Assembly: GCF_963675165.1 (NCBI RefSeq)
Contig: NC_087382.1
Span: 4,503,963 to 4,567,962, forward strand
Length of the DNA stretch: 64,000 nt
Direction of reading: 5' to 3'
DNA from: Halichondria panicea
Lineage: Eukaryota > Porifera > Demospongiae > Suberitida > Halichondriidae
The position numbers and the translations under genes are program-made. The notes under the pieces were generated by a model. That model did no database searches, had not been told where the DNA came from, and was given only the letters and a program-made list of their open reading frames with translations. Shown one piece after another: positions 2,404 through 35,949 of the stretch. Numbering within the stretch: position 1 is the stretch's first letter; each line of letters starts with the position of its first letter.

Positions 2404-5400
2404 TCAGTCGATCTCAACAACTGAATATGTCGTGGGTTGTTGTGGCCTAACAGGCTCTTGAAAACGTCTGTAGTCTCGCGCAGTTATCGGTTGGAAAAGT
2501 TGTTCGAGGTCTTGGTTCCGAGGTTGGCTGTCTCTAACAGCAGGCTGGATTATTGGAGCCTCGTACGGATGTTGTTCTTCATCGTCAGACTCTCCTTGTG
2601 CATATGGAAGCTCTTGCAACAAAAGTTGATTTTCCTCGTGCTCAATTTCTTCTTCTTGTAGATCTATATCTGCATTTCGCCGTAGATTAGGACACTGCAC
2701 TAACCCTCTCATACGCACCCAAACTGGCCTGAGTAGAGCAATTATACTTATCCAGAGACGTGTGTTCTTGAGAATGAAGGTGTGGGCATGATATCCAAAA
2801 ATCACAATGAAAAGAAACGCAGAAACTGTTATAGATATACTGGCAGCTATATGCGGGATTCCTTCGCTGTCTTGCAAGAAGTATAAGCAAGCTGCTAGAA
2901 CTCCAAGATTAACCAGAAAAGCACTCTCTAAGTTGTCAATTGCATTAACTTCATATACATGACTGGAAATGTGCTTGAGACTTAATAGAATAAGCACAAT
3001 GAGGATAAGAGACAGTAGGGCGGCAGATTGTGAGACAAAGGCTGACACAGTGTAGTAAGAGATTCGAACAAGCAGTAACAATCCTACCCAGTATCGATGT
3101 TTGGGTTTAAGCTGTGTATGGTATTTAACAATGAACTCATTGTATTTCGGATTGTTGACCCAGCGGAAAGGGATCCATCTACCAAGTTTGGTCAACCACT
3201 GGCCAAACAGAAGAAGCACTGTATACACCAGTCCCAGAATAATGATTACTGACACTGTAATGAACCGTGGAGCGTGGCTTGGTTTGAAATAGGGAACATT
3301 AGCATCATACAACCAGACTGTTTCACTGGAGCCATCCGGATAGTTTAAGTATGCATGCTGTAAGCTTGCAATGATCGTGCGTATGAACTTGGAATACGAT
3401 AGCAGGATAAGTGTGCACAATGTGCCAACAGGATCTCTCTTCTTGCCTATGAATGTTGAAAATCTCACTGAATACTCACAAAGCATGATGATCAGTACGG
3501 TCAATATGAGAATGTAGGAAGGGAACACTAGTTGAAGAAGAACTTTAGCATACGAGTCCATTCCATTGAAAAAGCAAGTCTCGATTCCAAGATCAAGGTT
3601 AAGCCATGAAATGAATATTCGAAGCAAACCAGGAGTTCCAGAGGGTACAAACAGAGAGCGATTCGCAAAAATCATGTTTGCATAAAAGATAAGTCCATTG
3701 ATTGTACCCGTAGTTACAGTCAAGTTGAATAGAACTACAAATGCAACCAAGGCGATTCCTGCCATTGCAAATGGTATGAGCAGAGAAATATAACTGTTGG
3801 TACACTCTCTGCATTGTGAGCTGCCTAGCACAGCACTTAGGTTCTTTTTGCAGGCACCACACAGTGTTCCAGTGCGATTGAATACACATTGAGAATCTGC
3901 ACCATGAGCTGTATTTAAGTTCACACTGACTAGCTCATCCACACAATAGTCAAAAGGGCAGTTCGGATATAGTAGATAGCCAGATTTAGTACTTGTGTTT
4001 ACATAGTCTATCCACACATTGGGTCTTCTGAGCACAGTTTCATTTTCCGGGAAACAGCTTGTTATATACGATTGTAATACCTCATCACACTCACATTTAA
4101 AGCAGTGTGTTCTGGTCTCCCTTTGCTGAAATCCAATTGGACATATACACGGTTGAAAAATCACGTTTAATGTTCGTTTAGATACCCCAATATTGTTGCA
4201 GGGACCATCTGCAAAAAGTTCAATGTCGGCTGTTCGATCACTTTTGTCTGGAATGAGAGAGTATTCAAGAAGTGAACATTCTGCGGGAATACGTTGAAGT
4301 GCTTTATTACTGTTGAGTAGTCGGCTACCTGTGACAACGGAGCTGATCACTGTCGCATTCACTGGATTGCCCACCTGATCAACCGCAATTACACTAATTG
4401 AAAACAGCTGTCCCTTCTTTACGTACACAGGTGCATGTTGGAAGTCGCTACAATTAGGCTGGTATCCGAAGCAATAACATACTTGAAGGGGTTCTGAAGA
4501 AATAAAATTGTTGACAATTGCACCGCTCACTGCTTGCAAAACCTTTTCAGGGTTGTAGTTGGTTGTCAGATTACTATAATCAATCAGACCAGCGAACTGT
4601 GCAGTAGCTAGAATATAGTCGGCTCCACTCAGGAATGTTTGGTTAGGAAAATCAAGAAGTAGTTTGTTTGCTGGGTTTAAAGAGCACCTGTCCAGTAGTC
4701 CTCCAAAAATGGCATTACTGCTTAGACTTGCAGTATTATTGATAAAGTAGACATTAAAATAGTTGTTGGCAACCCTTGTTACGTTAGATCTGTTTAGTAA
4801 CGTTTGAAGAAAGCACTCTTTTCTTGCATTATATCGTGTCTCACAATCTTGAATTACATCCATCACGTAAATAGCTCCTCCTTGTACAGCAGAATTTTCC
4901 GTAAACAAGATTTTTGATGTCTCATTTTCCTCTTGTTTCACTATATTCAACTTGGTGTCAATACTATACAGTGCACCTCCGTACGTAGCATTATTCTTAG
5001 AAAAGCACATCTTTATATTAATATATTCGCACTGTGTTGTAGTTATGTCGCCTTTGATGGCAATGGCACCGCCGTACTCATCAGCAAAGTTTTCTAAAAA
5101 TCGAGAATCGAAAGTCTTAACCTGTCCTCTGCGAATATTCACTGCTCCCCCCCAATATTTCGCAACATTGTGACGAAACAAGCAGCTACGAATTTTTGTG
5201 AATGTGCTGGATAACATGAATATAGCACCACCGTAGTCAGCTGTATTATTAACGAAGGAAGAGTGTCTAATGATACATTCCGAGTCTGTTCCAGTTGAAG
5301 TGAAATAAATTGCTCCGCCATAAGCAGCGTTATTGTTAAAGAAGTAGCAGTCTGAAATTAGTATTCTTACTGGTTTTATATCCACTGTAGCTCCTATTAA

Positions 5401-6837
5401 GGCTATAGTCCCTCCTCCAAAAGCTGCTTGGTTATCAGAAAAGTTGCTTCTTAAAACTGTTAGATTAACATTACCCACAACACTAATAGCACTGCCTATC
5501 TGTTGTGTTGATTTGAGTTTATTTCGTTTGAAAGAACTGTCTGCAAAAAATGCTGTTGAAACACTTGCCACAATAATAGCACCACTTGTAAAATTTCCCG
5601 CATACGTAGTCTCTGACATAGACAAAGATCCATACTGAAAGAGCATGTCGTAATAATTACCAGCAGCACCGTTTTTAATAAAATGATTGCGAAGGAACGA
5701 AGAGTTACAGCTGGTCATGTATATATTAGTATTACTAGCGCTGTTATTAATGAATGCATTGTCGATGCCTATGAATGAGCAACTAGAACCAACTAACACT
5801 CCACCCACTTGATTATTTACGAACGTGTTATTGACAAAGAAACTGGAACTTTTGATTATGATGTAGACAGAGCCTACGTTGTCGGAATAAGCACTATTGT
5901 TGCTCCTAACAACCGAGCCGTCTTGTATATAAATACATCCGGTGCTTACAGCTGTGTTGTTTAAAAAAGAGCTGCTCAAAATACTAATAGTAGTGTTGCG
6001 TGCATTAATTACTGATGCCAAAATTGCCAAATTACTCTCAAATTCACTTTCAATAATCACTATCAAAGAATTTAGAGTATCTACTGCACCTCCCGAATCT
6101 GTTGCGTTATTCTGGAAGAAGCTACTCTGATGCAGGGTGAGGTCAGTCTGATCAGCAAAAATTGCTCCTCCAGAAGTGGCTGTGTTGTTTTTAAAAAGAG
6201 TATGTTGTATTAGGACGAAATTGTTGTTCTGAAAAAACGCAGCACCACTACATTGATGAATTGACAAATACGCATAGTTATTAACAAAAGAACTATTCCG
6301 AATGCTCACACTTTGTGATTGAAATACGTAGAGTGCGCCACCTCCAGTGTTCCCAGTAATATGGTTGCCAACGAAATGACAGTTAACTATCGAAATGTTT
6401 GTCACATTTATGAAAGATATTGCACCACCAAAGCCGACCTCTCCCTGGTGTGTGCAACCTGAGAACGTAAGTCCAGCTATTTCAACAGTCTGGATATTTT
6501 GAAAGCTCATTCCAGTTGGTCCTCCCTGGCAGAGGATTGTTGGATTACACTGTGGGCTGGAGCATGAAGAGGAAATTTGAACATGGCCACTGGAGACGTC
6601 ATGCATAGAAATGTGTCGTTGTAAGAGGTGTTGACCAGAAAGAAAATACAGCTGTATACTGTTATTGAAGATACTAGATGGTAAATCATTGATGGTGGAG
6701 CAGTGTTCTTGAGGACATGCGTCAGTGAAGTTACCAGGGACTACGACTGTTGCCATGGATGTACAATCCAGGTGGTTCGGACATGATAACAATGTTACTA
6801 CCAGTAGCACAACGGACAGCCTATCTCTATAATCCAT
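2404..6837 (-). CDS. giant secreted-beta-helix, multi-pass membrane protein (intronless)
   Basis: A single open frame of 1477 residues starts at ATG 6837, and the N-terminus is a signal peptide. Residues about 30-760 are repeats with FxNN/NNxA and GGAI/GGAL motifs, the pattern of a right-handed parallel beta-helix like chlamydial polymorphic outer-membrane proteins, with many N-glycosylation sites. A Cys-rich stalk follows (CxCPIGF, CGAC, CREC motifs). Then come roughly eight to ten hydrophobic segments with WLNLDLGIETCF and LLQLVFP, and an acidic tail ending PTTYSVVEID. Similar architectures occur in sponges and other early-branching animals and protists; the function is not known. Lack of introns contrasts with the neighbouring genes. 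The upstream paralog at 7590-13175 lies in the same orientation about 750 bp away. Adhesion or recognition is only inferred. Confidence 0.9.
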   Translation of the reverse strand: MDYRDRLSVVLLVVTLLSCPNHLDCTSMATVVVPGNFTDACPQEHCSTINDLPSSIFNNSIQLYFLSGQHLLQRHISMHDVSSGHVQISSSCSSPQCNPTILCQGGPTGMSFQNIQTVEIAGLTFSGCTHQGEVGFGGAISFINVTNISIVNCHFVGNHITGNTGGGALYVFQSQSVSIRNSSFVNNYAYLSIHQCSGAAFFQNNNFVLIQHTLFKNNTATSGGAIFADQTDLTLHQSSFFQNNATDSGGAVDTLNSLIVIIESEFESNLAILASVINARNTTISILSSSFLNNTAVSTGCIYIQDGSVVRSNNSAYSDNVGSVYIIIKSSSFFVNNTFVNNQVGGVLVGSSCSFIGIDNAFINNSASNTNIYMTSCNSSFLRNHFIKNGAAGNYYDMLFQYGSLSMSETTYAGNFTSGAIIVASVSTAFFADSSFKRNKLKSTQQIGSAISVVGNVNLTVLRSNFSDNQAAFGGGTIALIGATVDIKPVRILISDCYFFNNNAAYGGAIYFTSTGTDSECIIRHSSFVNNTADYGGAIFMLSSTFTKIRSCLFRHNVAKYWGGAVNIRRGQVKTFDSRFLENFADEYGGAIAIKGDITTTQCEYINIKMCFSKNNATYGGALYSIDTKLNIVKQEENETSKILFTENSAVQGGAIYVMDVIQDCETRYNARKECFLQTLLNRSNVTRVANNYFNVYFINNTASLSSNAIFGGLLDRCSLNPANKLLLDFPNQTFLSGADYILATAQFAGLIDYSNLTTNYNPEKVLQAVSGAIVNNFISSEPLQVCYCFGYQPNCSDFQHAPVYVKKGQLFSISVIAVDQVGNPVNATVISSVVTGSRLLNSNKALQRIPAECSLLEYSLIPDKSDRTADIELFADGPCNNIGVSKRTLNVIFQPCICPIGFQQRETRTHCFKCECDEVLQSYITSCFPENETVLRRPNVWIDYVNTSTKSGYLLYPNCPFDYCVDELVSVNLNTAHGADSQCVFNRTGTLCGACKKNLSAVLGSSQCRECTNSYISLLIPFAMAGIALVAFVVLFNLTVTTGTINGLIFYANMIFANRSLFVPSGTPGLLRIFISWLNLDLGIETCFFNGMDSYAKVLLQLVFPSYILILTVLIIMLCEYSVRFSTFIGKKRDPVGTLCTLILLSYSKFIRTIIASLQHAYLNYPDGSSETVWLYDANVPYFKPSHAPRFITVSVIIILGLVYTVLLLFGQWLTKLGRWIPFRWVNNPKYNEFIVKYHTQLKPKHRYWVGLLLLVRISYYTVSAFVSQSAALLSLILIVLILLSLKHISSHVYEVNAIDNLESAFLVNLGVLAACLYFLQDSEGIPHIAASISITVSAFLFIVIFGYHAHTFILKNTRLWISIIALLRPVWVRMRGLVQCPNLRRNADIDLQEEEIEHEENQLLLQELPYAQGESDDEEQHPYEAPIIQPAVRDSQPRNQDLEQLFQPITARDYRRFQEPVRPQQPTTYSVVEID

Positions 6838-7589
6838 TGACTACAAAATGATGAAGTACAGTATATAATAGCTCCAAAACTTACTTCAATCGGTAATGTT
6901 TGAATAGAGCTCATAAAAATGTTTCTTTAGTCCAAATATCGAATGAGTTTTGGAAGTATAAATATCTGTCAGTGATCTTATGTTAGATTGTGATGTATTG
7001 CCTATCCGTTTCTCAGTTCATAGCTTATCTTTCAGTACTTAGTAACTCATTTCTAGCTGTTTGCTAACCACAGTGTTCCAGTTGTGCAGTGACTAAAAAC
7101 ACTGTAATTGGTAACACAAGCCAAAAATAAAAACAATAATTATAGCTTTAAAGTGTTGTTAAGTTATAAGCTGTGTTGATAATAACCGATTGTTGGATAT
7201 AATTGATTCTTAGACAAATTAAGTGTTGCTGTTGTCTATAGTTACCGAAATTACATAGAAAGTACAATTATTATCAAGTCTAAACAGTGCCATGTTTGTG
7301 AAAGTAAGTAATTTGATAGCTGTATCTAGAAGATGTGTTTGTATAATACATCTAGATTTTTAATCATATCGGGTGTTGAAAGAGAAGTTTATAGAGTGTG
7401 AGTAAACAAAAGCAGTGTATAGCTAATATAAAAATGTAGAGTTTGTTTTTAATCGAATAAGTGTTGCTGTTCTATAGTTGACGAAAGCAGAAAGCAAATT
7501 TATCAAGTTTATAGTTAAAATAAAATGTGTTTGTGAAGGTACATTTATCTAGGGACTGAGGTGTAAAAACAAACACGCAAGTTTGGGTA
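6838..7589. other. intergenic between the two giant paralogs
   Basis: AT-rich spacer that should contain the promoter of the 2404-6837 gene and the 3' end of the 7590-13175 gene. It holds an imperfect direct repeat, about 90 bases, at 7221-7315 and 7459-7545. Both copies begin AAGTGTTGCTGTT and include CTATAGTT and GTTTGTGAA. No gene is seen. Confidence 0.5.
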
Positions 7590-10500
7590 TCAGTTGTTGT
7601 TCTTGTGAATTTCGACCAATGCATATGTTGTGGGTTGAGGATATCGTCGATTCGGTTGGTTGAGTCTCCTGTAGTCATCGTCGGTGATAGGCTCCAGTAG
7701 TTCCTCAAGGTCTGCATGACGTGGTTGACTGTATCGAACAGCTGGCTGGATTACAGGAGGATCATAGACATTTGTAGCAACATCAGGTACTTCTCTTTCA
7801 ACGAGCGGTTCGTGAAGTTCTTCATCTTGTTCATCTTGTAGCGGCTGCAGATGATCTTGAAACTGGACCACTACATTCTGCTGTCTTTCACGTAAATGCA
7901 CAAGATTTTTAATAGAGCGAGTCATTTTTACCAACCATGTTATTTCTTTCAATATAAAGGTATAGATGTGATACCCTAATATGACTATAAACGTAATAGC
8001 AGCCACAGCTACAGATAGATCTGCTACAACTGCTGCCATTCTTGCGTTATCACGCACATAATACTGAACTACCGAAATCACTCCAAGGTTAACGAGAAAT
8101 GAGGATTCAAGTATCTCGAGCTTTTTTGATTCATAAATATGAATCGTGAGTAGCTTTAGCAGTATCAGAAAAAGCACAATGCAGAAAGAAAATAGTAACG
8201 ATGTTTGGTCTGAAAAACAAGTGGCAACAATGTGTAGCAAGGCACGAACAAGTAGCAGCAATCCGACCCAGTAACTGTGATGAGGTGCAAATGGTTCAAA
8301 ATGTTTGTTGACAAATTGTTTGATCCACTGTAGTGCCTGCTTTTCTTCAAACTTAGGAAGCCATTGACCGAACAAGATGAGAGAAGTGTATAGTAACACA
8401 ACTATGATAATTACAAACGCTGCTATTAATCGTTGAAAATGACTAGGTTTGAAATAAGGGATGTTCGCATCATGTAACCACACGATATCCCAGGTGTCAT
8501 CTGGATAGGTGATGTATGTATACTGTAAGTTGGTAATGATTGTGCGTATGAACTTGGAATAAGAGAGCAGGATAAGCGTGCACAGTGTGCCAGCCAGATC
8601 CCTTTTCCTGCCAAGGAAATTGGAGAATTGCACCGAATACTTTACAAGTACAATGATAGCTGCAGTTAATAGAATGACGTATAAAGGAAACACTAACTGG
8701 AGAAGAGCTTTAGCATACGAGTCCATTCCATCATAAAAGCAAGTCTCGATTCCGAGGTCAAGATTAAGCCATGAAATGAAAATTGTTAGGAATTTTGACG
8801 TTCTTGGTGGCAATAAGAGAGATTGATTTGCAAAAACGATGTTTGCATAAAAAACAAGTCCATTGATTGTACCAATAGCTATGGTCATATTAAGCATCAC
8901 TATAAATGCAACCAAGGCGATTCCTGCCACGGCAAATGGTATTAGGAGAGAAATAAAACTGTTGGTACACTCTCTACATTGTGAGCTGCCAAATACAGCA
9001 CTTAGGTTCTCTTTGCAGGCACCACACAGTGTTCCAGTGCGATTGAATGCACATTGAGAATCTGCACCATGAACTGTATTTAAGTTCACACTGACTAGCT
9101 CATCCACACAATAGTCAAATGGGCAACTGTCATGCAATAAATAGCCAGATACATTGCTTCTGTTTACAAAGTCTATCCATACGTAAGGCTTTCGAAAAAC
9201 AGTTTCTTTCACCAGTGAGCAGCCTGTTATATACGACTCTAACAGTGGGTCACACACGCAGGAGCACAGCGTTCTAGTTTCCTCAGGATAAAATCCAATT
9301 GGACATGTACACGGTTGAAAAATCACGGTTAATACTCGTTTAGATATCCCGATATCATTACAGGGACCATCAGCAAAAAGCTTGATTTCTGCAAAATTAA
9401 ATTCATCTTGTGGGTAAATGGCATACCCTATAGACGAGCATTTGGAAGAGATTGCTTGTCTTGTTTGATCAACATTAGCTAGTTTGGCATTGTTGATAAC
9501 TGAGCTGATAACCGTGGCATTCACTGGATTCCCTAACTGGTCAACTGCTACAATGCTGACTTCAAAGAATTGACCTTTCTTTGTGTATATAGGTGCATGC
9601 TTGAAATAGCTACAGTTGTGTTGCTGCTGACGACAGAAGCAAATTTGAAGTGGTTCGGAAGAAATAAGATATTTGATGTTTGTTTTGCCAGCTAATGGGT
9701 TGTATGGAAATGTCAGGTTACTATAGTTAAACTGATCAATAAAAGTTGCAATGGTCTGCACGTAGTCAGCTCCGTTGTGTGAGGAAGAATAGTCTGGAAA
9801 GTCAAAAAGGAGCTCATTTGAAGGATTCAAAGAGCATCTGTCCAGTAGCCCGCCAAATATAGCATCACCACTCACACTCGCAGTGTTGTTGACAAAAAAT
9901 ACGTTCAAGTAGTTTGTGTCCCTCAATGGTGCTGATGTTGAATTGAGCAGAAGAGTTTGAAGGAAACATTCTTCTGAAGAATATTGTGAAACGCATTGCT
10001 CTCCAATATCAGAATCGTTAATAAACACTCCGCCCCCTTTCTGTGCTGAGTTTTCTCTGAGTACAAGTTTCAGGTCATCTCGGCTGATGGATTTTTGCTT
10101 TTTCTTGACTAAGTAAAGTTTAGAGTTACTGCTCAAGTAGAATGCACCACCATAAGTGGCAATGTTCTTTGTTAGCTCAAAGTATCCCGAAACCAAGTTG
10201 ATGCTTGAGTTAATAGCGTGTATACCACCTCCTGTTAGAGTTGCCGTGTTTAGAGCAAATATTCCCGATCTTTGCTCGCTGAATGATAATTCCACAACAC
10301 CATTGTACGTCAAGATCCCACCACCTGAAATGTGAGCTGCATTTTGTGTAAACTGTACACTGCAAGAAATGTTGAGATTGCTCCACAATAATGTCAGCGC
10401 CCCTCCATACCCAGCTGAGTTTGAGCTCACAGTAATAGCTTCTTTGCCCTCAAAGAATACGTTAGTTTTAATGGCGACTATAGCTCCTCCAGCTAGTTCA

Positions 10501-13175
10501 CAGAAGTTATTGTAAAGCATTAAATTTTCGATCAGATGTAACTTGCTTGCACCGGCCTCAGTATTAATCAGGTGACTGTTTAAATTACACTGTGCCACAG
10601 AAAACAAGAGAATTGGTGTTATGACAACAGTTTCAAATTCTCTTTCGTTTAAACTGTCATGCCAAAAGCAAGTGGTGATGTATACAGCTCCAGCATACTT
10701 ATGGGCATGGTTACTTAAATAGCAATCCCCACCACTGTACACTTCACCTGATACAGCTGCGATTGCACCACCTGTATGGGCAGCAAAGTTTCCCACATAG
10801 TGCGTGTGTCGAGAGTATAATGATCCACCATAAATGCAAACTGCTCCTCCAAGCTCTAGGCTGGTGTTGTTTGTAAAGTTGGTGTCTCGGCATTCTAGCT
10901 TCCCATTGATGGTGCCAACAGCCCCTCCTCTTAATGCTGTATTGTTTTCATACGCACTGCTTTCAATTGTTATCAAATGAGCATCAAAACCTGCAATGGC
11001 TCCGCCATACTTTACTGCTTTATTGCCAACAAATAAGCAATTCGTTATATATAGACTACTGTTGCTAAAAATAGATACAGCTGCACCATGTTCACCTGCA
11101 TTGTCACAAAATGTGCTCTCTGAAATCATTATTTCCCCTCCTATAATATTGATGGCTCCACGTTCATTCATCACAAATTCTGAAGAAAAGACTGAGGCAT
11201 CTCCATATATAATGTAAATTGCTCCACCCAACGAACCCAAGGGCGCATTATTGTATTTGAAAGAACAGTTAAATGCCATTAATGTGAATATCATTCCACC
11301 CACTGCACTACCTGTATTGTTGTAAAAATAACAATTTGATAAGTGTAGTTGTTGTTTATTACTGATGGAATCTCCATGGATGTATATAGCACCACCTCGA
11401 ATACCAGCGTTATTTTGTACAAAGTGACAGTTTACAATCGATATAATATGGGTGTTGACCAATCCAGTGCTATAAACAGCTCCAGCTTCACTTGCTTGAT
11501 TGTTAGAAAAAGTAGTATCGGAAATGTACACAGGAAATGAGGATACAATGTTCATAGCACTTCCCAATCGTCCACTATTTGTATGAAATAATGTTTTTGT
11601 AACAATTGTGCTTTTTGTTGGCTTATTTAGCGCTATCACACTATACAGTGGTGATTTGTTACTTTCGAAATGACTTCCATTCACTATCAATGAACCAGAA
11701 TGCTGATATATTACTCTACCGTTATTCTTGTAATAGTAATTTTGTATGTCTGTAAGAGCACAGTCTTCGCTAAATATGACACCTCCACCATTGACATAGT
11801 TGTTCATAACATTGTTATCGTTGAGGTTCAGGAAGCAAAGTGTTTTAGAATTGCAAATGCAAAAAATTATTCCACCGAATGCAAACTCGTTATCTGAGAT
11901 AGCACTGTTGTTTGTGAACGTGTTATTTGATGAATATGTGAAACCGTTGCTGATGAAATATACTGCACCAACTTTTGCTCTGTTTCCCATGTAGTAGCTA
12001 CCACTGCTAAATATGGCTGATCCATCATCAGCATATATGCCTCCATTGGCAGTAGCATTGTTGTTGAGGTAGGAGCTGTTTGTAGAAGTGATACTGCAAT
12101 TACGAGTATAAATGATTGAACCTGAGAGTGCAATATTTTTTACAAAGAGACTGCGTGAAATTATAAGAGAACCTTGTTGTATATGAGTTGCTCCTCCTAA
12201 ATTATATGCACTGTTTTGCTTGAATTGACATTCAAGTAGTGATAGTTGTGTTTTTGTGGCAAAAATGGCTCCACCCGTGTAAGCAATATTGTTCGTGAAG
12301 AGGGTTTGATGAATGCGAACAGTGCTCTCGAAAAATGCTGCCGTGCCACCATAGGTTGTTTGTTCACCATTGTGAGCAAAAACTGTACCACTGATTTGAA
12401 TCAGAGAGGATATGACATAAAGTGCAGCCCCAGTTATTGCTCTATTTTGAAGGAATCGGCAATCGCTTATACTCACGTTCATGCACTCCAAAAGATACAT
12501 AGCACCTCCATTGAATTTGTATTTGCTACAGTAATCGGCAAGGCCACCAGGTTGACACTGGGCTGAATTGTTGACAAAGGAACAGTTTTTAAAGTTAACT
12601 TTAAGTGATTGTACTATGAAAATTGCTCCTCCTCCACTAGTCGTTTGTCCAATAATGTAGTTATCAATAAAATTACTATTAGCAACTAAAATATTTGTCA
12701 CATTAGAGAAAGATAAAGCGCCACCATAACCAGTTGTTCCCTGGTGTGAGCATCCTGAGAACGTAAGTCCAACTATTTCAACGGAATGGATATTTTGAAA
12801 GATGATACCAGAAGCTGGTCCGTTGCAGAGGATTATTGGACTACATTGTGAACAGTTGCTTGAAACTGCCATTTCAATGCCAGGAAGTCCTTGTATTCCA
12901 ATGATCTCCTCCAACAAGTGTTCGCCATGAAGGAAACGCAGGCTGATGCTTTGATTAAATGTTACATTCAATCCAGATGCAAGAACATTTAGTGATAAGC
13001 ATGGTTCATGAGGACAAGTGCCAGTAAAGTTTGATGGAACAATTGTGTACAACTCACTGCAACCTTGGCTGCCACTCGAGTATACGATAATTAGTGCTAC
13101 CACCATGAAAATGCACTGCCACAGGTGACCGTTGACAAATATTGTCACCATTTTCCAGTCGATACCTTTGTACAC
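7590..13175 (-). CDS. giant secreted-beta-helix, multi-pass membrane protein, longer paralog (intronless)
   Basis: One open frame of 1861 residues starts at ATG 13175; a second Met eight codons in (13151) would leave a more typical signal peptide and may be the real start. The layout matches the 2404-6837 paralog, but the NNxA/GGAI beta-helix region is longer, about residues 40-1140. The Cys stalk and membrane region are close in sequence (CPFDYCVDELVSVNLNT, WLNLDLGIETCF). The tail keeps the same spacing of motifs: VYDPPV, DDYRRL and PTTYALVEI. No introns and no frame breaks occur across 5.6 kb, arguing for active selection. It is presumably a glycosylated cell-surface protein; the ligand and function are unknown. 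Confidence 0.9.
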   Translation of the reverse strand: MYKGIDWKMVTIFVNGHLWQCIFMVVALIIVYSSGSQGCSELYTIVPSNFTGTCPHEPCLSLNVLASGLNVTFNQSISLRFLHGEHLLEEIIGIQGLPGIEMAVSSNCSQCSPIILCNGPASGIIFQNIHSVEIVGLTFSGCSHQGTTGYGGALSFSNVTNILVANSNFIDNYIIGQTTSGGGAIFIVQSLKVNFKNCSFVNNSAQCQPGGLADYCSKYKFNGGAMYLLECMNVSISDCRFLQNRAITGAALYVISSLIQISGTVFAHNGEQTTYGGTAAFFESTVRIHQTLFTNNIAYTGGAIFATKTQLSLLECQFKQNSAYNLGGATHIQQGSLIISRSLFVKNIALSGSIIYTRNCSITSTNSSYLNNNATANGGIYADDGSAIFSSGSYYMGNRAKVGAVYFISNGFTYSSNNTFTNNSAISDNEFAFGGIIFCICNSKTLCFLNLNDNNVMNNYVNGGGVIFSEDCALTDIQNYYYKNNGRVIYQHSGSLIVNGSHFESNKSPLYSVIALNKPTKSTIVTKTLFHTNSGRLGSAMNIVSSFPVYISDTTFSNNQASEAGAVYSTGLVNTHIISIVNCHFVQNNAGIRGGAIYIHGDSISNKQQLHLSNCYFYNNTGSAVGGMIFTLMAFNCSFKYNNAPLGSLGGAIYIIYGDASVFSSEFVMNERGAINIIGGEIMISESTFCDNAGEHGAAVSIFSNSSLYITNCLFVGNKAVKYGGAIAGFDAHLITIESSAYENNTALRGGAVGTINGKLECRDTNFTNNTSLELGGAVCIYGGSLYSRHTHYVGNFAAHTGGAIAAVSGEVYSGGDCYLSNHAHKYAGAVYITTCFWHDSLNEREFETVVITPILLFSVAQCNLNSHLINTEAGASKLHLIENLMLYNNFCELAGGAIVAIKTNVFFEGKEAITVSSNSAGYGGALTLLWSNLNISCSVQFTQNAAHISGGGILTYNGVVELSFSEQRSGIFALNTATLTGGGIHAINSSINLVSGYFELTKNIATYGGAFYLSSNSKLYLVKKKQKSISRDDLKLVLRENSAQKGGGVFINDSDIGEQCVSQYSSEECFLQTLLLNSTSAPLRDTNYLNVFFVNNTASVSGDAIFGGLLDRCSLNPSNELLFDFPDYSSSHNGADYVQTIATFIDQFNYSNLTFPYNPLAGKTNIKYLISSEPLQICFCRQQQHNCSYFKHAPIYTKKGQFFEVSIVAVDQLGNPVNATVISSVINNAKLANVDQTRQAISSKCSSIGYAIYPQDEFNFAEIKLFADGPCNDIGISKRVLTVIFQPCTCPIGFYPEETRTLCSCVCDPLLESYITGCSLVKETVFRKPYVWIDFVNRSNVSGYLLHDSCPFDYCVDELVSVNLNTVHGADSQCAFNRTGTLCGACKENLSAVFGSSQCRECTNSFISLLIPFAVAGIALVAFIVMLNMTIAIGTINGLVFYANIVFANQSLLLPPRTSKFLTIFISWLNLDLGIETCFYDGMDSYAKALLQLVFPLYVILLTAAIIVLVKYSVQFSNFLGRKRDLAGTLCTLILLSYSKFIRTIITNLQYTYITYPDDTWDIVWLHDANIPYFKPSHFQRLIAAFVIIIVVLLYTSLILFGQWLPKFEEKQALQWIKQFVNKHFEPFAPHHSYWVGLLLLVRALLHIVATCFSDQTSLLFSFCIVLFLILLKLLTIHIYESKKLEILESSFLVNLGVISVVQYYVRDNARMAAVVADLSVAVAAITFIVILGYHIYTFILKEITWLVKMTRSIKNLVHLRERQQNVVVQFQDHLQPLQDEQDEELHEPLVEREVPDVATNVYDPPVIQPAVRYSQPRHADLEELLEPITDDDYRRLNQPNRRYPQPTTYALVEIHKNNN

Positions 13176-15300: not shown

Positions 15301-15308
15301 TATAAAAG
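15301..15308 (+). promoter_or_regulatory. TATA box of the Arg-rich precursor gene
   Basis: TATAAAAG lies 61 bases before the ATG at 15362. That spacing would give transcription start near 15330 and a very short leader, a layout typical of highly expressed secreted-peptide genes. Confidence 0.6.
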
Positions 15309-15361: not shown

Positions 15362-16021
15362 ATGAAGGTGGTTACTCTTGTCCTCCTGGCATTAGTTGCC
15401 GTGACTGCCAGTGTGGCTCACACTGCTTCCGAAACTGAAGATAATGAGGTGCAATCTGCTGTGGTCAACACGGCTAGCTATGACAAAAGTAACATGCAGT
15501 CAGCAATCGCTGATGAGGACAGTGATGATGAATTAGAGCTTGCTTTATCCCAAGATGATTCAGATGACGAAAATGCTCTCTCTCAAGATTCTGACCAGGT
15601 TCAGGAGAGCCTTGTAAAAGATCAGTTTTTTCGGCGAAGGTATCGACGTCCTCGTCGCATAATCCGAAGAGTAACACGAAGGTATCGACGTCCTCGTCGC
15701 ATAATCCGAAGAGTAACACGAAGGTATCGACGTCCTCGTCGCATAATCCGAAGAGTAACACGAAGGTATCGACGTCCTCGTCGCATAATCCGAAGAGTAA
15801 CACGAAGGTATCGACGTCCTCGTCACATAATCCGAAGAGGGTACCGTCCCCGCCAGCGTGTGATCATAATTCGTCGTCCTTCTCCGATTTATTTCCAGAG
15901 GATGAGGCGTCTGAGAGCTTTGTTGAGGAACTGCAAACTCAGGCTGCATAGAATGATTGCCCTCCTGAGACGCAGGCAGTACAGGCTAAGGAGGAGGCAC
16001 GTCTCTCGAAGGTGGGGGTGA
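15362..16021 (+). CDS. secreted Arg-rich tandem-repeat precursor (cationic peptide-like)
   Basis: 219 residues in one exon. The ATG at 15362 was chosen over the in-frame ATG at 15266 because it follows a TATA box at the right distance and begins a clean signal peptide (MKVVTLVLLALVAVTASVA). An acidic stretch follows (about residues 25-85; DEDSDDELELALSQDDSDDE). The protein then switches to very basic: four identical 14-residue units (RYRRPRRIIRRVTR in one register), a fifth diverged unit, a GYRPRQRVIIIRRPSP linker, and a Leu/Arg/His-rich C-terminus that could form an amphipathic helix with one Cys. An acidic pro-part neutralising a cationic part is typical of antimicrobial-peptide precursors. 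Silica-, chromatin- or glycan-binding roles are alternatives. I recognise no named family. The signal peptide and layout are seen; the function is inferred. Confidence 0.8.
   Translation: MKVVTLVLLALVAVTASVAHTASETEDNEVQSAVVNTASYDKSNMQSAIADEDSDDELELALSQDDSDDENALSQDSDQVQESLVKDQFFRRRYRRPRRIIRRVTRRYRRPRRIIRRVTRRYRRPRRIIRRVTRRYRRPRRIIRRVTRRYRRPRHIIRRGYRPRQRVIIIRRPSPIYFQRMRRLRALLRNCKLRLHRMIALLRRRQYRLRRRHVSRRWG
15641..15840 (+). repeat. 42-bp coding tandem repeat, four identical units plus a partial fifth
   Basis: Units begin with TATCGACGTC at 15641, 15683, 15725 and 15767. These four are identical at every base. The fifth (15809-15840) has one change (GTCACAT for GTCGCAT) and breaks off. Identity at silent positions means very recent expansion or ongoing homogenisation. 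The length is a multiple of three, so copy changes keep the frame. Confidence 0.95.
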
Positions 16022-17884
16022 GAAGATTGATGAAGCAACACTAACAAGGGACAAAAGTCCAATAGCTAGTTTATATGACTGTATAGTGTTAATGTTCGCA
16101 TACAGTTTTAGTCATTCTGTGTAATTGTACTACATATGTAGCATGTGATCGATATACATGATTGATATCGCTGCAAATCTTTCCGAACGTCAGCGATGCC
16201 GCTTGTTCAAGTCCAACCATAGCTGCATATGTCCATTCAAAAGCAAATACCGGTACTTGGTTAGCTGAGCTTTTGGGTATGTTTTTCTAAGGCCTGCTCT
16301 ACCGAAGAGGATGTCCTGTCAGTGTTTAGTGTCGTCAATGATGACCATGGTGAGAGAATTATTACTTTCAGCTGGATCTTGCATTGAAATATTGTTGTGT
16401 GGGTTGACTTGTCTGAGAATAGGTGAATCCTAAGTAGTACTGCATAATTTATGTTGTTGTATGACTGTCCTGAACTGCTTTTTTAATTGTGGTTTTGGGC
16501 TTAAATTTTCTCGTAATTGTCAAAATTGGTTGCTTTCATTTCCTTACGCGCATATTCATTTTTTTTGTGTTGTACGTTAAGCAGAGATCTGAATGTGTTC
16601 AGGTATTTTGTAACATGTAGGGGCAATATAATTAAATCATGCAGCCATATATGTTTGTTTAAACTTGTTAGTGTCGACTCTTTAGTGCGTTCCTCTGAGT
16701 GTGTGGTGCTATTAAAAAGGTTTGCTCTGAATAAGTTGTTAGGATGAAACTTTCCAAACTATGAGCTATGGTAGCCTTGAGGATTTGCTGGATCAATGTA
16801 AAATTTATTTGCAGCCGTTGGTACGTGTGTTTGTACTGCATGTGTCTAGCTGGAGTAAAGTTTCATTGACTACTAACTGTACCTATGATGTCAAACATGT
16901 GCCAATTAATATCTCGGGTAAAATTTATTTGCAGTCTGTTTTTTGAGTGAGTGCAAATTGAAGTTAAGTTGTGCCTGAGAGTATTGTGTTATGATTCCAA
17001 CGTTGAAGTTTCTATAATAATTATGTAAATGGAGTCTTCCAAGAGCGCATAAAAGCTCTTGAGACTTCTTATAGCAAAGCTTTTAATGTGATGAAAACAA
17101 TAATATTACGGGATAAGTGTATAGTTAACAACTGGTTTGATGATAAAGTGATGTGCGCGTATAATCTTAAACATCACCATGTGCAGTGAATTAATGGTTG
17201 CTTAAATTTATAAGTGCTCTCACTTGATAAATACCGTACGTGTACTGTTTTATTTTTTTATTTTTGGTACTATAATGGTATGTTTCTAGCTGGAATATCT
17301 CTATACCGCTATTTTTAATGTATTCTAGATCTATCTTCAATAATATGATGTGTGCAAGTCATTTTTAAGTTTTGTGATAAATCTATCTTCATGGTAAATT
17401 AAATTAGATTACTGATTGAACCGTAAATCAAATCGTTTTAAAGCATTTTTTTGCAGACTGTTAGTAGGTAAGGGCAATTCACCTACAAGTGCATTGTGTT
17501 GTATTGCTCACACAACCTTGACATGATATGGGTAGGAACAGAGGAGGTACGACAGGTGCGGTGCAGCTCAAGTAATTAGCCTTTGATTGAGCAATAATTA
17601 TTCGCCCACGCCCCGCCCACGTCGTATGTTTTTGCTGAGAGTAATCAAAGGCTAATAACTTGAGCTGCACCGCGCCTGTCACCTCCTCTGAGGTAGGAAT
17701 GTATTTACTCCACGGCTGATTCACCTTCCGATGGAATTGTAAAATCGTAAACATTTTACAAGACACAACATTATTTGTGGAATGATAGTATAAGCAAGTA
17801 AAACAATAAACATGCTCCATGGGACTGTTTGTATATATGCATTCAAACGGAGACAACAACATCAGTTGCTCATTATTCAACACA
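16022..17884. other. intergenic, 3' flank of the Arg-rich gene
   Basis: AT-rich DNA with a 17-base direct repeat (GTAAAATTTATTTGCAG at 16798 and 16918) and the inverted-repeat element at 17539-17690. The small open frames at 16517-16946 lack domains and look random. No gene is supported. Confidence 0.55.
17539..17690. mobile_element. hAT-like MITE with 8-bp target duplication
   Basis: Termini CAGAGGAGGT and ACCTCCTCTG form arms of about 50 bases (17539-17590 and 17643-17690). The element is flanked by the 8-base direct repeat GGTAGGAA at 17531-17538 and 17692-17699, with one extra A before the right copy. CAG..CTG ends plus an 8-base duplication are hallmarks of hAT transposons. With no coding content this is a non-autonomous copy. 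It lies about 195 bases before the start codon of the Sushi gene. Element 47949-48085 shares the termini. Confidence 0.8.
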
Positions 17885-20800
17885 ATGGAGAAGAACCCAG
17901 TGTTTGAAAACAATAGTTACGACACTAAATCCTCACTATCTGACAGCAGGACTGATGTCCTACAACCTGCATGGTCTAAGCAAACCACAAGACGTAAGAC
18001 TTCTTGTCGGACATGTGTATCTGCAACCTTTGCAGTAGTGGCTGTGCTTGCTCTACTCATTCTTGCTGGAGTGGTAGTCACAATGATTGTGCAACCACAA
18101 TATTCCAACACCGAGTCTAACGCTTTGTTGAAACAAGAGATGGAAAGTTTGAAAGAATTTATGACACAACAAGTGAATGTAAACAAGGAACAAACAAAGT
18201 TTAATCAAATGCAACAACGTGAGATTGAATCTCTGAAGCATAATCTTCAGCGTTCAAATAAAAGCAATATCGAGCTACGAATACAGTTTGCCTCTGAGAT
18301 AGATACTTTAAGCAAAAATGTTACTGCTGGAATTGCGACTGTCCAGTTACAACAAAGCCAGAGTGTGATCCATTGCATGGAAAAAACGAATGAAACATAC
18401 TACAGAATTGAAAATTTGACGGAGGTCATCCAGCACTCGCTAGTTAAGTTAACTAGAAAGCAAGAGGAGGATATTTCAAGCCTCGAGAAATCTTCAAATG
18501 AGAGTGTTGAAAATCTACACATTCAACTTCATTTTTTTAATCATTCCTTCACCACTGATATTGAGGGTGTCTGGAGAAGGCTAAACCAGAATGCACTCGA
18601 CTGCCTAGGAGAGACTAACGAAACACAGAACGAGGTGGAGGCAATCAATAATCGAATTAATCATCTCGTTTTGAATTTTACATCAGATGTTGTGTTAATC
18701 CGGACTCTACTCAGTAATATACAAAATTCTTCTGGCTCACAAGGTAAGCAATCTAAAATCAGCTCTTAAAAGTTTTACTGTTGATAATCAATTGCAATGC
18801 AATATAACACATGCAGAATCTGATGGACCGCTAACTTGTGAAGTACTTTCCTCACCCACCAATGGAGGATTCAGTATAGAGGCAGGACCAAACTCACTGA
18901 GTGGTGGATTGGGCTCAGTGGCTACCTACACATGTGACCCAGGCTATGCTCTTGAAGGACAAGGGACCAGGACTTGTGAGGACACTAACGGAGGGACGGT
19001 CACTATGGGAACATGGAGTGGAGCGCAACCATCTTGTAACGGTATACGTTTGATATATATGAGACATACTGATTAATGCTTTTTGAAGCTGCATGGGAAA
19101 TTATACAAATTAAACTGGTATCAGTTCGCATGCCCTTCCTTCACAGACAATTATCTTTTTCTTTATGCATGTACTAGAAATTTTTTGCTTGGAGCCTCCC
19201 ACACCAGTGAATGGAGATGCGGTATTGAGTAGTCAAGAGATGAGTGTGGGCACCATGGCTACCTACTCCTGTGACTCTGGGTACGTTCTTGTTGGCCAGG
19301 TAACCAGGACTTGTGAAGATGTTAGAGGAGAGATAATTGGAACTTGGAGTGGAACTACGCCAGCATGTGAAGGTACACACAATAAACAGTGAATAGCTGG
19401 AGTATTGTAAACAAAACTCATTGCCTGTGATTGTATTAACTTCTCACTTAGTTTTTTTGCTTACTTTCCAATCATGCTTACATACCATTGCATAGTGATT
19501 ATTAGATGCCAGCAGTTGACTCATCCAAGTAACGGAGAAGTCAGTGTTTCTACTGGCACACACGGAGTGAACCTCGGTGTGGGAGCTGTAGCTACCTACT
19601 CCTGCAGCAATGGCTATGGACTAGTGGGACAAGCTACCAGGACTTGTGTTAGTGATGGAGGGAGCTCAGGAATATGGAGTGGGAGTGCACCAACGTGTGA
19701 AGGTTTGTATAAGTGAATGTAGAAAGAATAATACAAGAAGACCCCAATAATGGAGTCTGAATGTGTCGGCATGCATTTCGACTGTGTGCATATGTAAATT
19801 ATTATGAGCTATAACAATAGTCATTTTTAATTTCTAAGGTGACCATCATGCATGCTACATGTTCTGAAAGCTTGGTCTAACATCACCCTCTCTTTAGTTA
19901 TTCATAAGCATCACTGCAAGGAATTCGAAAATAATAACTGAAATATGTAAACAACTACTATTTGTTTTAAAATAATATTGCTTGTTTACACAATTATTCA
20001 CAGAGGTGATAACATGTCTGTCACTTGCACCTCCGGTCAATGGAGTTCTCACATTCACTCCTGGTGCTGACAACAGTAACATTGGACTGGGATCAGTAGC
20101 CACTTATTCCTGTAACCTCGGCTATGTGCTAGTGGGACAATTTACAAGAGTGTGTCTAACTGCAAATGGTGGAGCTTGGAGTGGAAATCAACCAGCATGT
20201 GAAGGTAGACAATATTGTTCTTTAAAAAGTCCATACATGTAGCTAGATGCAATGATCATAAGGATTGTGCAGTGTAATGTATGTCGTATTTAGTTAAGTA
20301 TCGTGCAGTAGCGTATTAATTATTTAGGACTGTCTGATTATACAGGTGCGGTCTACTGTCCATCACTAACGGCCCCAGGCAATGGTAGTGTGACTATCAT
20401 CTCTGGTGTCAACCTTCTCAGTGTTGGGTCAGTGGCTACCTACTCATGTGACCCAGGCAATGTCCTCCTGGGACCCCCCACCAGGACTTGTGAGGACCCA
20501 GACTCTGACTTAGTGGGAACATGGACTGGAACAAAGCGAGAATGTCAAGGTTAAGCTATGAAAATACCCTGTTTTGTAAAAATTACCTGATCTAAATACG
20601 CAAAACGTTGGGTAAATACCTCGGAGTGTAATATGAATTATGGTACTTTCTATCTCTATACATGAAATGGCAAAATTGCACTTGTATTTCCTAAAACCAT
20701 TGGTTTACCTATCTATTTTTCTCATGCTTTGGTTTCTCTTACATAATTGATTTCCTTCTCTCAGTGATTCTCTGTCCTGACATCACGGCCCCTGTTAATG

Positions 20801-22683
20801 GGACCCTCGTCATTTCCACCCCCTCACCAACCCAACCCCTTGGTGTGGGCACCACTGCCACCTACTCGTGTGATCCTGGCTATGTTCTGGTTGGTGATCT
20901 CACTAGGACTTGTGAAAACTCGGAAATTGGAAGTGTCGGAACTTGGAGTGGCTCAGAAGTGGATCCTACATGTGAGTCCACTGCAGATATATATATATAT
21001 ATACTGGTACAAGAGTAGATAAGAGTAAGAGTGTTGAACTGCTACAGCATTTGCCTCGTCCTATGTCATCACTTGATAGTAATCAGTACTAATTGTTATG
21101 TTAGCGACACTTCCCAGAAACCGCACATGCTGTGATTGCGCAGTTCAGTGCTACAAATCACAGACCACAGTTTACTTAACAGCACTCATTAATTGAATAG
21201 TGACGACAGTGATGACGCATGTTAAGGCAAATGCGGTTCCACGATTACTACAGCAGTTCAACACTCCTACTCTTGACTGGTACTATAGTCCCCACCTTTA
21301 CATACACTGTTGTAGTCGAATTAATTGAAATCTGTTTCCGTAACTCTGCTTTCAATTAATCTCCCGGCTCACTCATGATTGTATGCTCATGGGCATCAGT
21401 CTGTATAGGCAGATTGAATTCTATAGTGGGATGATTTTGATTTTGTTTACTAAACTGCAGGTTTTATACCGAACAGGGCTCTAGTGGACTGTGAGGATAC
21501 AAGCTGTCGATATGAACAGCTGGTGTGTCCCGATCGAGACAACTGTACAATACACTGCAATGACATGGAACCATACGCTTGTTTCAGGACTGGTGTTGTG
21601 TGTCCGAGTGTATTGGGAGATTGCAATCTCAATTGTGACGATTCTTACGCCTGCATACAAGCTAACACCACATGCCTTCAAGGGAACTGTAACGTAAACT
21701 GTCCGAATGATTACTCTTGTCAGAATTCAGTCATGCAATGCTCAGGTGACAGCTGTCTCCTATCCTGTGAGGGCAGGGAATCTTGCTCGTATTCAACTAT
21801 CGAATCCTCAGGGGAAAACTACCTACTCAACTGCGTAGGACAAAATTCATGTTCTTATTTGGACTCTGAATGTTCTGGTGAAAGTTGCCGTACTAATTGC
21901 TATGAGGATTATTCATGCTCACACTCAACCTTAGACTGCTCCAATGGAAACTGCAGCTTACACTGCACTGATAGGTACGCTTGTCAATATGCAACAATGA
22001 GGTGCTTAGCGAATGCTTTTTGTAATGTGAATTGCCTCAATGGAAACCGAGCATGCCAATGGTCAGATTTTGTGTGTGAACAAGGTAGTACCTGTGTCTT
22101 TAACTTCGATGGAGAGTTCACTGGTGACACTATTGGCTGGTATACAGATATCACATGTGAAGAGAACAGTACCTGCAGCATCAGGTGCACTGGACTGAGT
22201 AATAATGCTCAGCAACAATGTTATCGTGCTGATATCATCTGTCCCACGAGTAATGGGGAGTGTACTGTCGAGTGCAGTGGCTATCTTTCCTGTCGATATT
22301 CACGCATTACATGTGGACCAAACAATGCCGTGAACTGCACTGGTCTTTCATCATGTCAACAAGCTAACTTTTATTGTCCAGCTAGCAACAATTGCACTAT
22401 CAACTGTAATGCACAGAACTCGTGTCAATCCTCTACCATCACTTGCTCAGCCAACAACAACTGCACTATCAACTGTGACGGCCAGTATTCCTGTAACAAT
22501 GCTCGAGTGACCTGTCCCACTGGAGACCACAGCTGCAACATACGCTGCACTGACCCACTGTCCTGTCAAGGCTTGAGTATCACCAACACACACAATGTCA
22601 ACCTGCTCTGTTGTGGTGGTCCCACTGCTTGTGCAGGAACGAGTGTGGTACCCACCTCCATCGATTGCCCCTATATTAATTAA
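17885..22683 (+). CDS. type II membrane protein: coiled coil, six Sushi domains, Cys-rich repeats (paralog 1)
   Basis: Eight exons: 17885-18743, 18817-19041, 19178-19372, 19496-19702, 20004-20204, 20346-20549, 20765-20971, 21461-22683. All introns are phase 1 and the joined frame is 1106 codons plus stop. The start at 17885 (MEKNPV) is the one conserved in paralog 2. There is no signal peptide; a membrane segment at about 48-69 follows a basic cytoplasmic head (type II). Residues 75-285 are heptad-like with many N-glycosylation sites. Each of exons 2-7 encodes one Sushi/CCP domain (C..P.NG, YSCxxGYxLxG, RTC, GxWSG, PxC). The last exon encodes about 405 residues of short Cys repeats (NNCTINCxxxxSC pattern) that I do not recognise. 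An ATTAAA signal lies at 22710. A surface lectin-like or complement-like recognition role is inferred. Confidence 0.88.
21006..21283. mobile_element. inverted-repeat insertion in intron 7 of Sushi paralog 1
   Basis: Left arm GGTACAAGAGTAG... AGTGTTGAACTGCT pairs with right arm AGCAGTTCAACACT... CTACTCTTGACTGGTAC, and the inner GCATTTGCCT pairs with AGGCAAATGC. The equivalent intron of paralog 2 (34472-34648) lacks it, so it was inserted after the gene duplication or lost from paralog 2. Confidence 0.7.
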
Positions 22684-29315: not shown

Positions 29316-29962
29316 AGTGAATGAGGTGCATGTGTTCGATAGCTTTGACACGTTGTTTATATTGTCTTTTCTTCTCAAGTTCATGTTTCCTGTAACAGTT
29401 GGTGTGTTGGTCTAGTCTGGCACTGTCTTGGACGTTCAATGACAATCCGGTTAGTTCTTCACCATCTACAGGTTTGGCTCTATACAGACATCACTAGCAC
29501 TGCACATTTCATGATCAGTGAGTAGGTTGGCTGTAAGGTCTCTTATTTTATTGTACCTGTTGAGAAAACGTTACTAGAAGCCTATAGAACAGAGAAACTG
29601 TTGCTAACATGTGTGCTGCTCTGTGCTTAGCCTCCTTGGCATGCATGCATTTTAAATCTGTCTGGTCTCGAGGCTACTCTGTGCTTTGCTGCACATGCGC
29701 AATCAAGGCATAACAATAGATTATTACGTCATTATTGTTGCACAATAAAATTGAGCCCTTCCCACTTTTTGGACAGATCTTGTGTAAAGCTGTTTCTGTA
29801 ACGTAAGTGATTGCATATCTTTACTGGAGCTTGTTGCCTTTTGACTCTCTATGGTGGCACTCGTGGCTGTGTCACAAGTATTACTTAGTAACCCAAACCA
29901 CCAGAGGTGACTAGAGCAGTTTTCTTGCTGGACAAGGGATAGTGGACAGTTAGCATCACACA

Positions 29963-35900: not shown

Positions 35901-35949
35901 AGGAACGAGTGTGGTACCCACCTCCATCGATTGCCCCTACATTAATTAA
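29963..35949 (+). CDS. type II membrane protein: coiled coil, six Sushi domains, Cys-rich repeats (paralog 2)
   Basis: Eight exons: 29963-30827, 30916-31134, 31312-31506, 33066-33272, 33541-33741, 33927-34130, 34265-34471, 34649-35949; all phase 1; 1132 codons plus stop. It begins MEKNPVYEFG like paralog 1. The order is the same: basic head, one membrane segment, coiled-coil stalk, six Sushi domains, Cys-rich C-terminal repeats. Exons 3-7 have exactly the same lengths as in paralog 1. The last exon is 78 bases longer. It carries an extra near-identical NCTxNCNAQNSCQSSTI unit and a rebuilt upstream part (SCDGQQSCSSS, SCDGRGSCSYA). Intron 3 has grown to 1559 bases, against 123 in paralog 1, by insertion of at least three repeats. 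It is a segmental duplicate of the gene at 17885; a recognition role is inferred only. Confidence 0.88.
31588..32290 (+). repeat. family A dispersed repeat in Sushi paralog 2 intron 3, interrupted by another element
   Basis: Begins ATTATGCCTCGAGGCG.AGCC, (TG)n, CAATGGTTGTAATGCGAC, AACAGCTTCTATAGGCTTCT, CTCGAGTTATGGCTAG and TGCACTAAAGCGC, and continues after 32224 (AGCTGTAAAAC..AGCCATTGTGA). Copy 39574-39935 is collinear without the interruption, so 31909-32224 is a nested insertion. Confidence 0.8.
31909..32224. mobile_element. CAGTGGCGTAG-type element with 5-bp target duplication
   Basis: Termini CAGTGGCGTAG and CTACGCCACTG are inverted repeats. The flanks are AAAAG (31904-31908) and AAAAG (32225-32229), and the interrupted family A repeat gives the empty site. 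No coding capacity. Element 62235-62839 has near-identical ends and also a 5-base flanking duplication. Confidence 0.78.
32352..32673. mobile_element. 320-base inverted-repeat element
   Basis: Arms of about 70 bases: 32352-32427 (GACTAGTCGGGCGCC.. GGGAATCAAGCCTATCC) pair with 32608-32673 (GGATAGGCTTGATTCCC.. GGCGCTCGACT). Third insertion in the same intron. Confidence 0.78.

What the first reader, a model, noticed from the sequence alone, without database searches (positions are those of the whole stretch)
15362..16021. Undescribed secreted precursor: acidic half joined to Arg-rich perfect tandem repeats
A signal peptide, an Asp/Glu/Ser-rich segment and then about 130 residues dominated by Arg, built from identical RYRRPRRIIRRVTR-type units and a Leu/Arg/His helix-like end. 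Charge-balanced precursors of this sort are known for antimicrobial peptides. Dibasic sites throughout could let proteases release the units. A mineral-, DNA- or glycan-binding secreted protein is equally possible. I recognise no family.
Basis: partly seen in the sequence, partly recalled or inferred. Interest (0 to 1): 0.88.

Follow-up and report, generated by a model that had tools for sequence, protein, structure and literature searches.

The report
Sponge antimicrobial-type peptide precursor, arginine repeats
This sponge gene encodes a secreted precursor whose arginine-packed second half makes it an extreme member of a large, apparently undescribed family of antimicrobial-type peptide precursors clustered on one sponge chromosome.

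Summary
Window 15362-16021 is a 219-codon frame: signal-like start, acidic segment (net -19), then 132 residues with 61 Arg (net +62) built on a 42-nt repeat, 4.9 copies, 99% matching. It is not an orphan. 34 other single-frame genes found in this genome, 33 on the same chromosome, share the layout signal, acidic pro-part, cationic end. P0001 scores 38.5 bits against a profile of 28 relatives; the best of 2000 segment-wise shuffles scores 25.9. 23 of 34 relatives pass an amphipathicity test; one matches the myeloid antimicrobial peptide 1fry, E 6e-4. 33 of 35 members end in Gly plus 0-2 basic residues, the amidation signal, against 14 of 266 control frames, and an amidating-monooxygenase-type exon is present. 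I conclude: a secreted host-defence-type prepropeptide, probably cut near a conserved Gln and acting as one long amidated polycation, not as 14-residue fragments. Antimicrobial action is inferred; no expression or activity data exist here. P0001 itself is not charge-balanced. The paper listings and review passages seen describe no such sponge family.

The parts
15301..15308 (+). TATA box (TATAAAAG), 61 bp before the ATG
   Evidence: Read directly; TATAA[AT] within 150 bp upstream in 32 of 37 family-type genes against 22.7% of random 150-bp stretches of the same DNA
15362..15424 (+). signal peptide, residues 1-21 (cut site estimated by homology with ..SVAYA-AP.. of relatives)
   Evidence: Translation; similar hydrophobic N terminus in relatives; no signal-peptide predictor was run
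15425..15622 (+). acidic Asp/Glu/Ser pro-segment, residues 22-87, net charge -19
   Evidence: aligns with acidic pro-part of relatives
15623..15625 (+). Gln88, border residue before the cationic part (probable processing site at or near it)
   Evidence: Invariant column in the 9-sequence alignment A3, though not so aligned in A1; border Gln in 29 of 35 members (three rule hits set aside)
15623..16018 (+). Arg-rich cationic domain, residues 88-219, net +62; C terminus ..RRWG would give an amidated Trp
   Evidence: helices 76-151 and 175-218 in an AlphaFold2 model of low confidence (mean pLDDT 68, pTM 0.34)
15635..15839 (+). 42-nt / 14-residue tandem array, 4.9 copies
16019..16021 (+). stop codon TGA

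Best explanation
The gene encodes a secreted prepropeptide of a sponge family of host-defence-type cationic peptides. Shown from sequence: shared signal + acidic pro + cationic layout, chromosomal clustering, TATA boxes, amidation-type C termini, amphipathicity of most relatives. Inferred: the acidic part helps keep the basic part quiet in the secretory path; a protease cuts at or near the border Gln (before Phe-Phe-Arg in P0001); the terminal Gly becomes a C-terminal amide by the PHM/PAM-type enzyme; the ~130-residue polycation acts whole. On a four-turn wheel its 14-residue repeat puts Tyr, Pro, Ile, Ile and Val within an arc of about 100 degrees and 7 of its 8 Arg outside that arc, so it should bind and disrupt, or agglutinate, negatively charged microbial surfaces.
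For: P0001 matches 10 other C6 places at E < 0.001 and scores 38.5 bits against a profile of 28 relatives, best of 2000 shuffles 25.9. 35 genes pass the signal/acidic/basic filter after removal of one false row. A relative matches the myeloid antimicrobial peptide 1fry, E 6.4e-4. In 24 of 35 cationic domains, P0001 included (p 0.022), the maximal hydrophobic moment is reached by at most 5% of 500 shuffles. 33 of 35 end in G[KR]0-2 against 14 of 266 control frames. PHM-type exon on C7: all 13 PDB matches at E <= 0.01 are peptidylglycine monooxygenases. The cationic domain of P0001 aligns with that of the 496-aa relative: score 128; 0 of 1000 repeat-preserving shuffles reach it, but narrowly, best 123.
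Against: No expression, peptide or activity data. P0001 is far more Arg-rich than its relatives and not charge-balanced. Searches with two relatives give P0001 at E 0.015 and not at all. 11 of 35 cationic domains do not beat shuffles at 5%, including all five Tyr-rich ones. The P0001 repeat holds a Pro, which would kink a helix, and the moment of the 58-residue tail taken whole peaks at 156 degrees, not near 100, although AlphaFold2 draws a helix there. Counts over paralogues are not independent. No positive selection: dN/dS in the cationic part 0.21-0.90 in 7 groups. The cutting protease is unknown. P0001 against the PDB gives only eL32-type matches, best E 0.002, which I take as Arg composition.
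Confidence: 0.64

Rival explanations
1. A secreted polycation for silica or extracellular-matrix assembly: the acidic part prevents early precipitation and the Arg repeats nucleate silica or bind acidic glycans, in the manner of diatom silaffins.
For: The animal has silicatein-type genes, so it probably makes siliceous spicules. Signal + acidic part + basic tandem repeats recalls silaffin-1 layout (recalled, not tested). Some relatives are Tyr/Arg or Ser/Arg repeat proteins, more like matrix than membrane peptides.
Against: The P0001 repeat unit has no Lys or Ser, the residues modified in silaffins (recalled). By the pro-part its best matches are the shorter amphipathic-peptide genes with amidation-type ends. 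One paper search with silaffin, sponge, arginine-rich, repeats, spicule found 0 papers.
Confidence: 0.16
2. A secreted cytolytic defence peptide aimed at eukaryotic competitors, predators or larvae rather than microbes.
For: Similar precursor anatomy is used by cytolytic peptides (general knowledge); the sponge peptide ASABF is also haemolytic (review passage).
Against: Nothing here separates microbial from eukaryotic targets; the one peptide match in the PDB is to an antimicrobial peptide.
Confidence: 0.12
3. A multi-peptide precursor cut at dibasic sites into identical 14-residue peptides.
For: Near-perfect repeats; a polyprotein precursor of similar style exists on C5.
Against: In the C5 polyprotein the units are parted by acidic spacers; P0001 has none. 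P0001 has 27 basic pairs in its cationic part and 33 of 34 relatives have at least one, so dibasic cutting would shred nearly all of them.
Confidence: 0.06

Closest known systems
Hydra arminin / periculin antimicrobial peptide families
   Same: Secreted precursor, bipartite negative/positive charge, many clustered paralogues, lineage-restricted (passages of PMC10945409)
   Different: No sequence relation tested; Hydra peptides are described with complex Cys patterns, P0001 has one Cys; the passages seen mention neither amidation nor Arg tandem repeats
Cathelicidins (myeloid antimicrobial peptide, PDB 1fry)
   Same: Relative L003 shares a 22-residue cationic stretch incl. GVKKYGPT with 1fry, E 6.4e-4
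   Different: No cathelin pro-domain by Pfam in the ten members scanned; pro-part is a short acidic stretch. Most likely convergence (inference)
Frog-skin antimicrobial peptide precursors (recalled)
   Same: Conserved signal and acidic pro-part with a faster-changing cationic peptide: lower identity in the cationic than in the pro-part in 6 of 7 paralogue groups, one of them by 0.01 only
   Different: One group shows the reverse; border is a Gln, not Lys-Arg; sequence relation not tested
Silaffin-1 of diatoms (recalled)
   Same: Signal, acidic part, basic tandem repeats
   Different: Repeats here lack Lys and Ser
ASABF of the sponge Suberites domuncula
   Same: Gene-encoded antimicrobial peptide of a demosponge (passages)
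   Different: 64-residue Cys-stabilised defensin-like fold; P0001 has one Cys

Membership tests
Clustered sponge prepropeptide family of this genome | Shared N-terminal signal and acidic pro-part | tested here: met
   Profile score 38.5 bits, best of 2000 shuffles 25.9; residues 1-90 alone 29.7 bits; BLASTP best E 3e-9 against the 34 members. Weaker in reverse: E 0.015 and no hit
Clustered sponge prepropeptide family of this genome | Single open frame with TATA box upstream | tested here: met
   TATAAAAG at -61; 32 of 37 family-type genes have TATAA[AT] within 150 bp
Clustered sponge prepropeptide family of this genome | C-terminal Gly with 0-2 basic residues | tested here: met
   P0001 ends ..RRWG; 33 of 35 members
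Clustered sponge prepropeptide family of this genome | Pro-part and peptide of near-equal opposite charge (common, not universal: 32 of 34 relatives within 10 charges) | tested here: not met
   -19 against +62 in P0001; relatives. Not taken as defining, since two clear relatives also fail it
Cathelicidin | Cathelin (cystatin-like) pro-domain | tested here: not met
   No such Pfam match in the 10 proteins scanned, P0001 included
Hydra arminin/periculin | Sequence homology | not tested
   No Hydra sequences were fetched
Silaffin | Lys/Ser repeats with modification sites (recalled) | tested here: not met
   Repeat unit RRYRRPRRIIRRVT has no Lys or Ser
Protamine / nuclear Arg-rich protein | No secretion signal | tested here: not met
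   N terminus shared with signal-bearing relatives; no Pfam match for P0001 up to E 1
Antimicrobial peptide (by function) | Kills or inhibits microbes | not testable with these tools
   Needs peptide and assay

The most novel reading that the evidence does not exclude
A demosponge carries a whole arsenal of gene-encoded cationic peptides built on one signal-plus-acidic chassis that has delivered unlike payloads: cathelicidin-like helices, Trp-rich peptides, Tyr-Tyr-Arg repeats, Ser-Arg repeats, an acid-only relative (charge -104), more distantly a five-unit polyprotein, and P0001, an amidated 132-residue Arg-repeat polycation, possibly used both to tend the symbiotic microbes and to arm or mineralise surfaces.
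Probability: 0.4. Interest if true: 0.82.

Novelty: new variant of a known kind. Interest (0 to 1): 0.68.

Why it matters
How sponges control dense microbial communities with their own gene-encoded effectors is an open question. The sponge passages of two reviews name ASABF, a defensin-like peptide, as the gene-encoded example beside cyclic peptides and depsipeptides; sponge knottins were also listed. A set of at least 35 prepropeptide genes with ready-to-synthesise peptides makes the question directly testable, and P0001 would be an unusual natural Arg-repeat polycation. The near match to a cathelicidin peptide would be a striking convergence.

Tried and rejected
Protamine or other nuclear Arg-rich protein: rejected by the signal-like N terminus shared with relatives. 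Ribosomal eL32 resemblance (best E 0.002): taken as Arg composition. Pfam GET2 match of one relative (27.8 bits, over its cut-off of 25.5): taken as composition. Weak NCBIfam and Pfam matches of P0001, the C5 polyprotein and others (none over a cut-off; best DUF5783 at 31.6 against 32): taken as composition or repeats. Positive selection on the peptides: not shown. Silicatein was first sought among single-frame cysteine proteases (cathepsins rank first, silicatein-type chains lower) and in one C12 cluster (cathepsin-like, with the catalytic Cys). A recalled active-site pattern then found 9 places (pattern read backwards: 3), six overlapping Peptidase_C1 hits; one of these exons has silicatein alpha as its best PDB match, while another exon of that gene ranks two other proteases above it. 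Border rules in scripts were crude: one search misplaced some borders; one search gave 32 of 35, of which I set aside three that lie upstream of the true border. Paper searches (57 and 75 with 0 papers; 39, 58 and 74 with loosened terms and capped lists of 20 of 493, 12 of 16 and 15 of 1260) listed no title or abstract start describing such a sponge family; one search served the Hydra comparison. I read passages only, of PMC10608444, PMC6850559 (no mention of amidation), PMC10945409 and PMC12466427. The species was not identified.

Full report
OBSERVATION. The frame at 15362-16021 (+) translates to 219 residues. A 42-nt unit repeats 4.9 times at 15635-15839 with 99% matches (register). Residues 22-87 carry net charge -19; residues 88-219 carry 61 Arg, 1 Lys and no acid, net +62. 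A TATAAAAG box stands at 15301-15308.

RELATIVES. The window lies at C6:4503963-4567962 of a 131-Mb genome. P0001 found 10 further places at E < 0.001, all on C6 between 3.90 and 4.38 Mb. Searches with two relatives gave 29 and 34 places at E <= 1, queries included, nearly all in three C6 clusters near 3.89-3.93, 4.06-4.10 and 4.37 Mb, with one strong place on C4; P0001 itself came at E 0.015 in the first and not at all in the second. Merging the fetched loci and the window and filtering for hydrophobic N terminus, acidic middle and basic end gave 36 frames of 52 candidates; one is an unrelated 1853-residue protein, so 35 remain with P0001. The filter was my own and the fetched loci are only the best matches, so 35 is neither complete nor independent of the criterion. 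Two further family-type places on C6 (near 3919642 and 3893716) were not fetched. One relative at C6:4079741 has the same signal but is acidic, 372 aa, with a charge of -104 in its body by the script.

DISTANT RELATIVES. C11:135132-135866 carries two cationic stretches and matches family genes on C6 down to E 1e-6. It also matches C5:3244777-3245361 at E 2e-8, where a 491-residue frame alternates acidic spacers with five similar cationic units. The C5 link to P0001 is therefore through C11 and was not tested directly.

MEMBERSHIP. A profile from the 28 relatives shorter than 200 residues scores P0001 at 38.5 bits and its residues 1-90 alone at 29.7; 2000 shuffles that keep the composition of signal, acidic and basic parts reach at most 25.9; the cationic part alone is not among the 12 rows printed. 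The cationic domain aligns with that of the 496-residue relative at 3902848 (RRRxRRPxRIIRRxxRR): score 128, best of 1000 repeat-preserving shuffles 123, best of 1000 shuffles of the partner 93, so the support there is narrow. Searched the other way, the 496-residue protein finds P0001 at E 0.005. P0001 is a divergent, repeat-expanded member.

FAMILY FEATURES. TATAA[AT] lies within 150 bp upstream of the ATG in 32 of 37 genes (the 35 plus the acid-only and C11 genes), P0001 at -61, against 22.7% of random 150-bp stretches. 33 of 35 proteins end in Gly plus 0-2 basic residues, against 14 of 266 other frames of 50 aa or more in the same DNA. This is the substrate form for C-terminal amidation (established knowledge of PAM; for ..GR and ..GRR a carboxypeptidase must act first). 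The genome has 18 Cu2_monooxygen matches; the C7 exon matches only peptidylglycine monooxygenases in the PDB, the one C1 exon tested matches only dopamine beta-hydroxylase. A Gln stands just before an aromatic residue or Leu at the start of the cationic part in 29 of 35 members (32 by the rule, less three misplaced). 34 of 35 have at least one basic pair inside the cationic part. This favours one processing site over many dibasic ones; it does not name the protease.

PHYSICAL CHARACTER. The maximal 18-residue hydrophobic moment of the cationic domain is reached by at most 5% of 500 shuffles in 24 of 35 members, P0001 included (0.98, p 0.022); the five Tyr-rich members fail. The repeat block of P0001 peaks at 104 degrees per residue, as expected of a helix, but any 14-residue repeat must peak at one of a few harmonics; the tail taken whole peaks at 156 degrees, and each repeat holds a Pro. 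An AlphaFold2 model on nine sequences gives helices 76-151 and 175-218, mean pLDDT 68, pTM 0.34: low confidence. In seven paralogue groups identity is lower in the cationic part than in the pro-part in six (one by 0.01) and higher in one; dN/dS in the cationic part is 0.21-0.90.

KNOWN KIN. Ten proteins gave no convincing Pfam family; one relative passed the GET2 cut-off, which I take as composition. Four sequences gave none over a cut-off in NCBIfam. Relative L003 matches PDB 1fry, myeloid antimicrobial peptide, over 22 residues at E 6.4e-4; it was the only relative searched against the PDB. P0001 gives only eL32-type PDB matches. The layout resembles what PMC10945409 (passages) describes for Hydra antimicrobial peptides: signal peptide, bipartite charge, clustered paralogues, no homologues outside the lineage.

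THE ANIMAL. One C2 exon has silicatein alpha 6zq3 as best PDB match, with Ser at the catalytic Cys place; six CGxSYAF-type sites overlap Peptidase_C1 hits. This points to a siliceous sponge; the species was not determined.

MECHANISM. Shown from sequence: precursor family, clustering, TATA boxes, amidation-type ends, amphipathicity of most members. Inferred: secretion, pro-part silencing, cut near Gln88, amidation to ..RRW-amide, action of the whole Arg domain on anionic microbial surfaces. The silica/matrix rival stays open because the animal seems to make silica and some paralogues are Tyr- or Ser-Arg repeat proteins.

NOVELTY. Searches of the held open-access library listed no description of such a sponge family (titles and abstract starts; three lists capped). 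Sponge passages of two reviews (PMC10608444 and PMC12466427) name ASABF as the gene-encoded antimicrobial peptide. Subscription literature was not searched. The kind (bipartite antimicrobial-type prepropeptides) is known; the family and its Arg-repeat form appear new.

Noticed in passing
window 2404-6840 (-) and 7590-13175 (-): Two large neighbouring proteins with Chlamydia-PMP repeats, one also with a right-handed beta-helix match, and hydrophobic C-terminal stretches by eye; possible sponge surface receptors.
   Followed up: partly
window 17810-22683 and 29954-35949: Two similar stretches, each with a coiled-coil-like start frame and a Cys-rich repeat frame, look by eye like a segmental duplication; a Sushi domain was found in the first (18792-19073).
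   Followed up: no
L090 (C5:3244740-3246260): 491-residue frame alternating acidic spacers with five cationic units: a polyprotein version of the same precursor idea. A second match in a 733-aa frame lies at C5:3165619, not fetched.
   Followed up: partly
C6:4079741-4080859 (L030, L062): Relative with the family signal but an acidic body (372 aa, charge -104, internal repeats), inside the peptide cluster; perhaps a separate neutralising partner.
   Followed up: no
C6:3909449, 3927004, 3890082, 3908023, 4083341: Family members whose cationic part is rich in Tyr-Tyr-Arg type repeats rather than amphipathic.
   Followed up: partly
L035 (C11:134094-137231): Precursor-like frame with two cationic stretches parted by acidic, Cys-containing spacers.
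   Followed up: partly
window 44626-45963 (+): Tandem-repeat frame with [16 protein letters not shown] units; no Pfam family over its cut-off.
   Followed up: no
C1:14.86-14.92 Mb (L068, L069, L072, L074, L075): Cluster of copper-monooxygenase-type exons; the one tested, L068, matches only dopamine beta-hydroxylase in the PDB.
   Followed up: no
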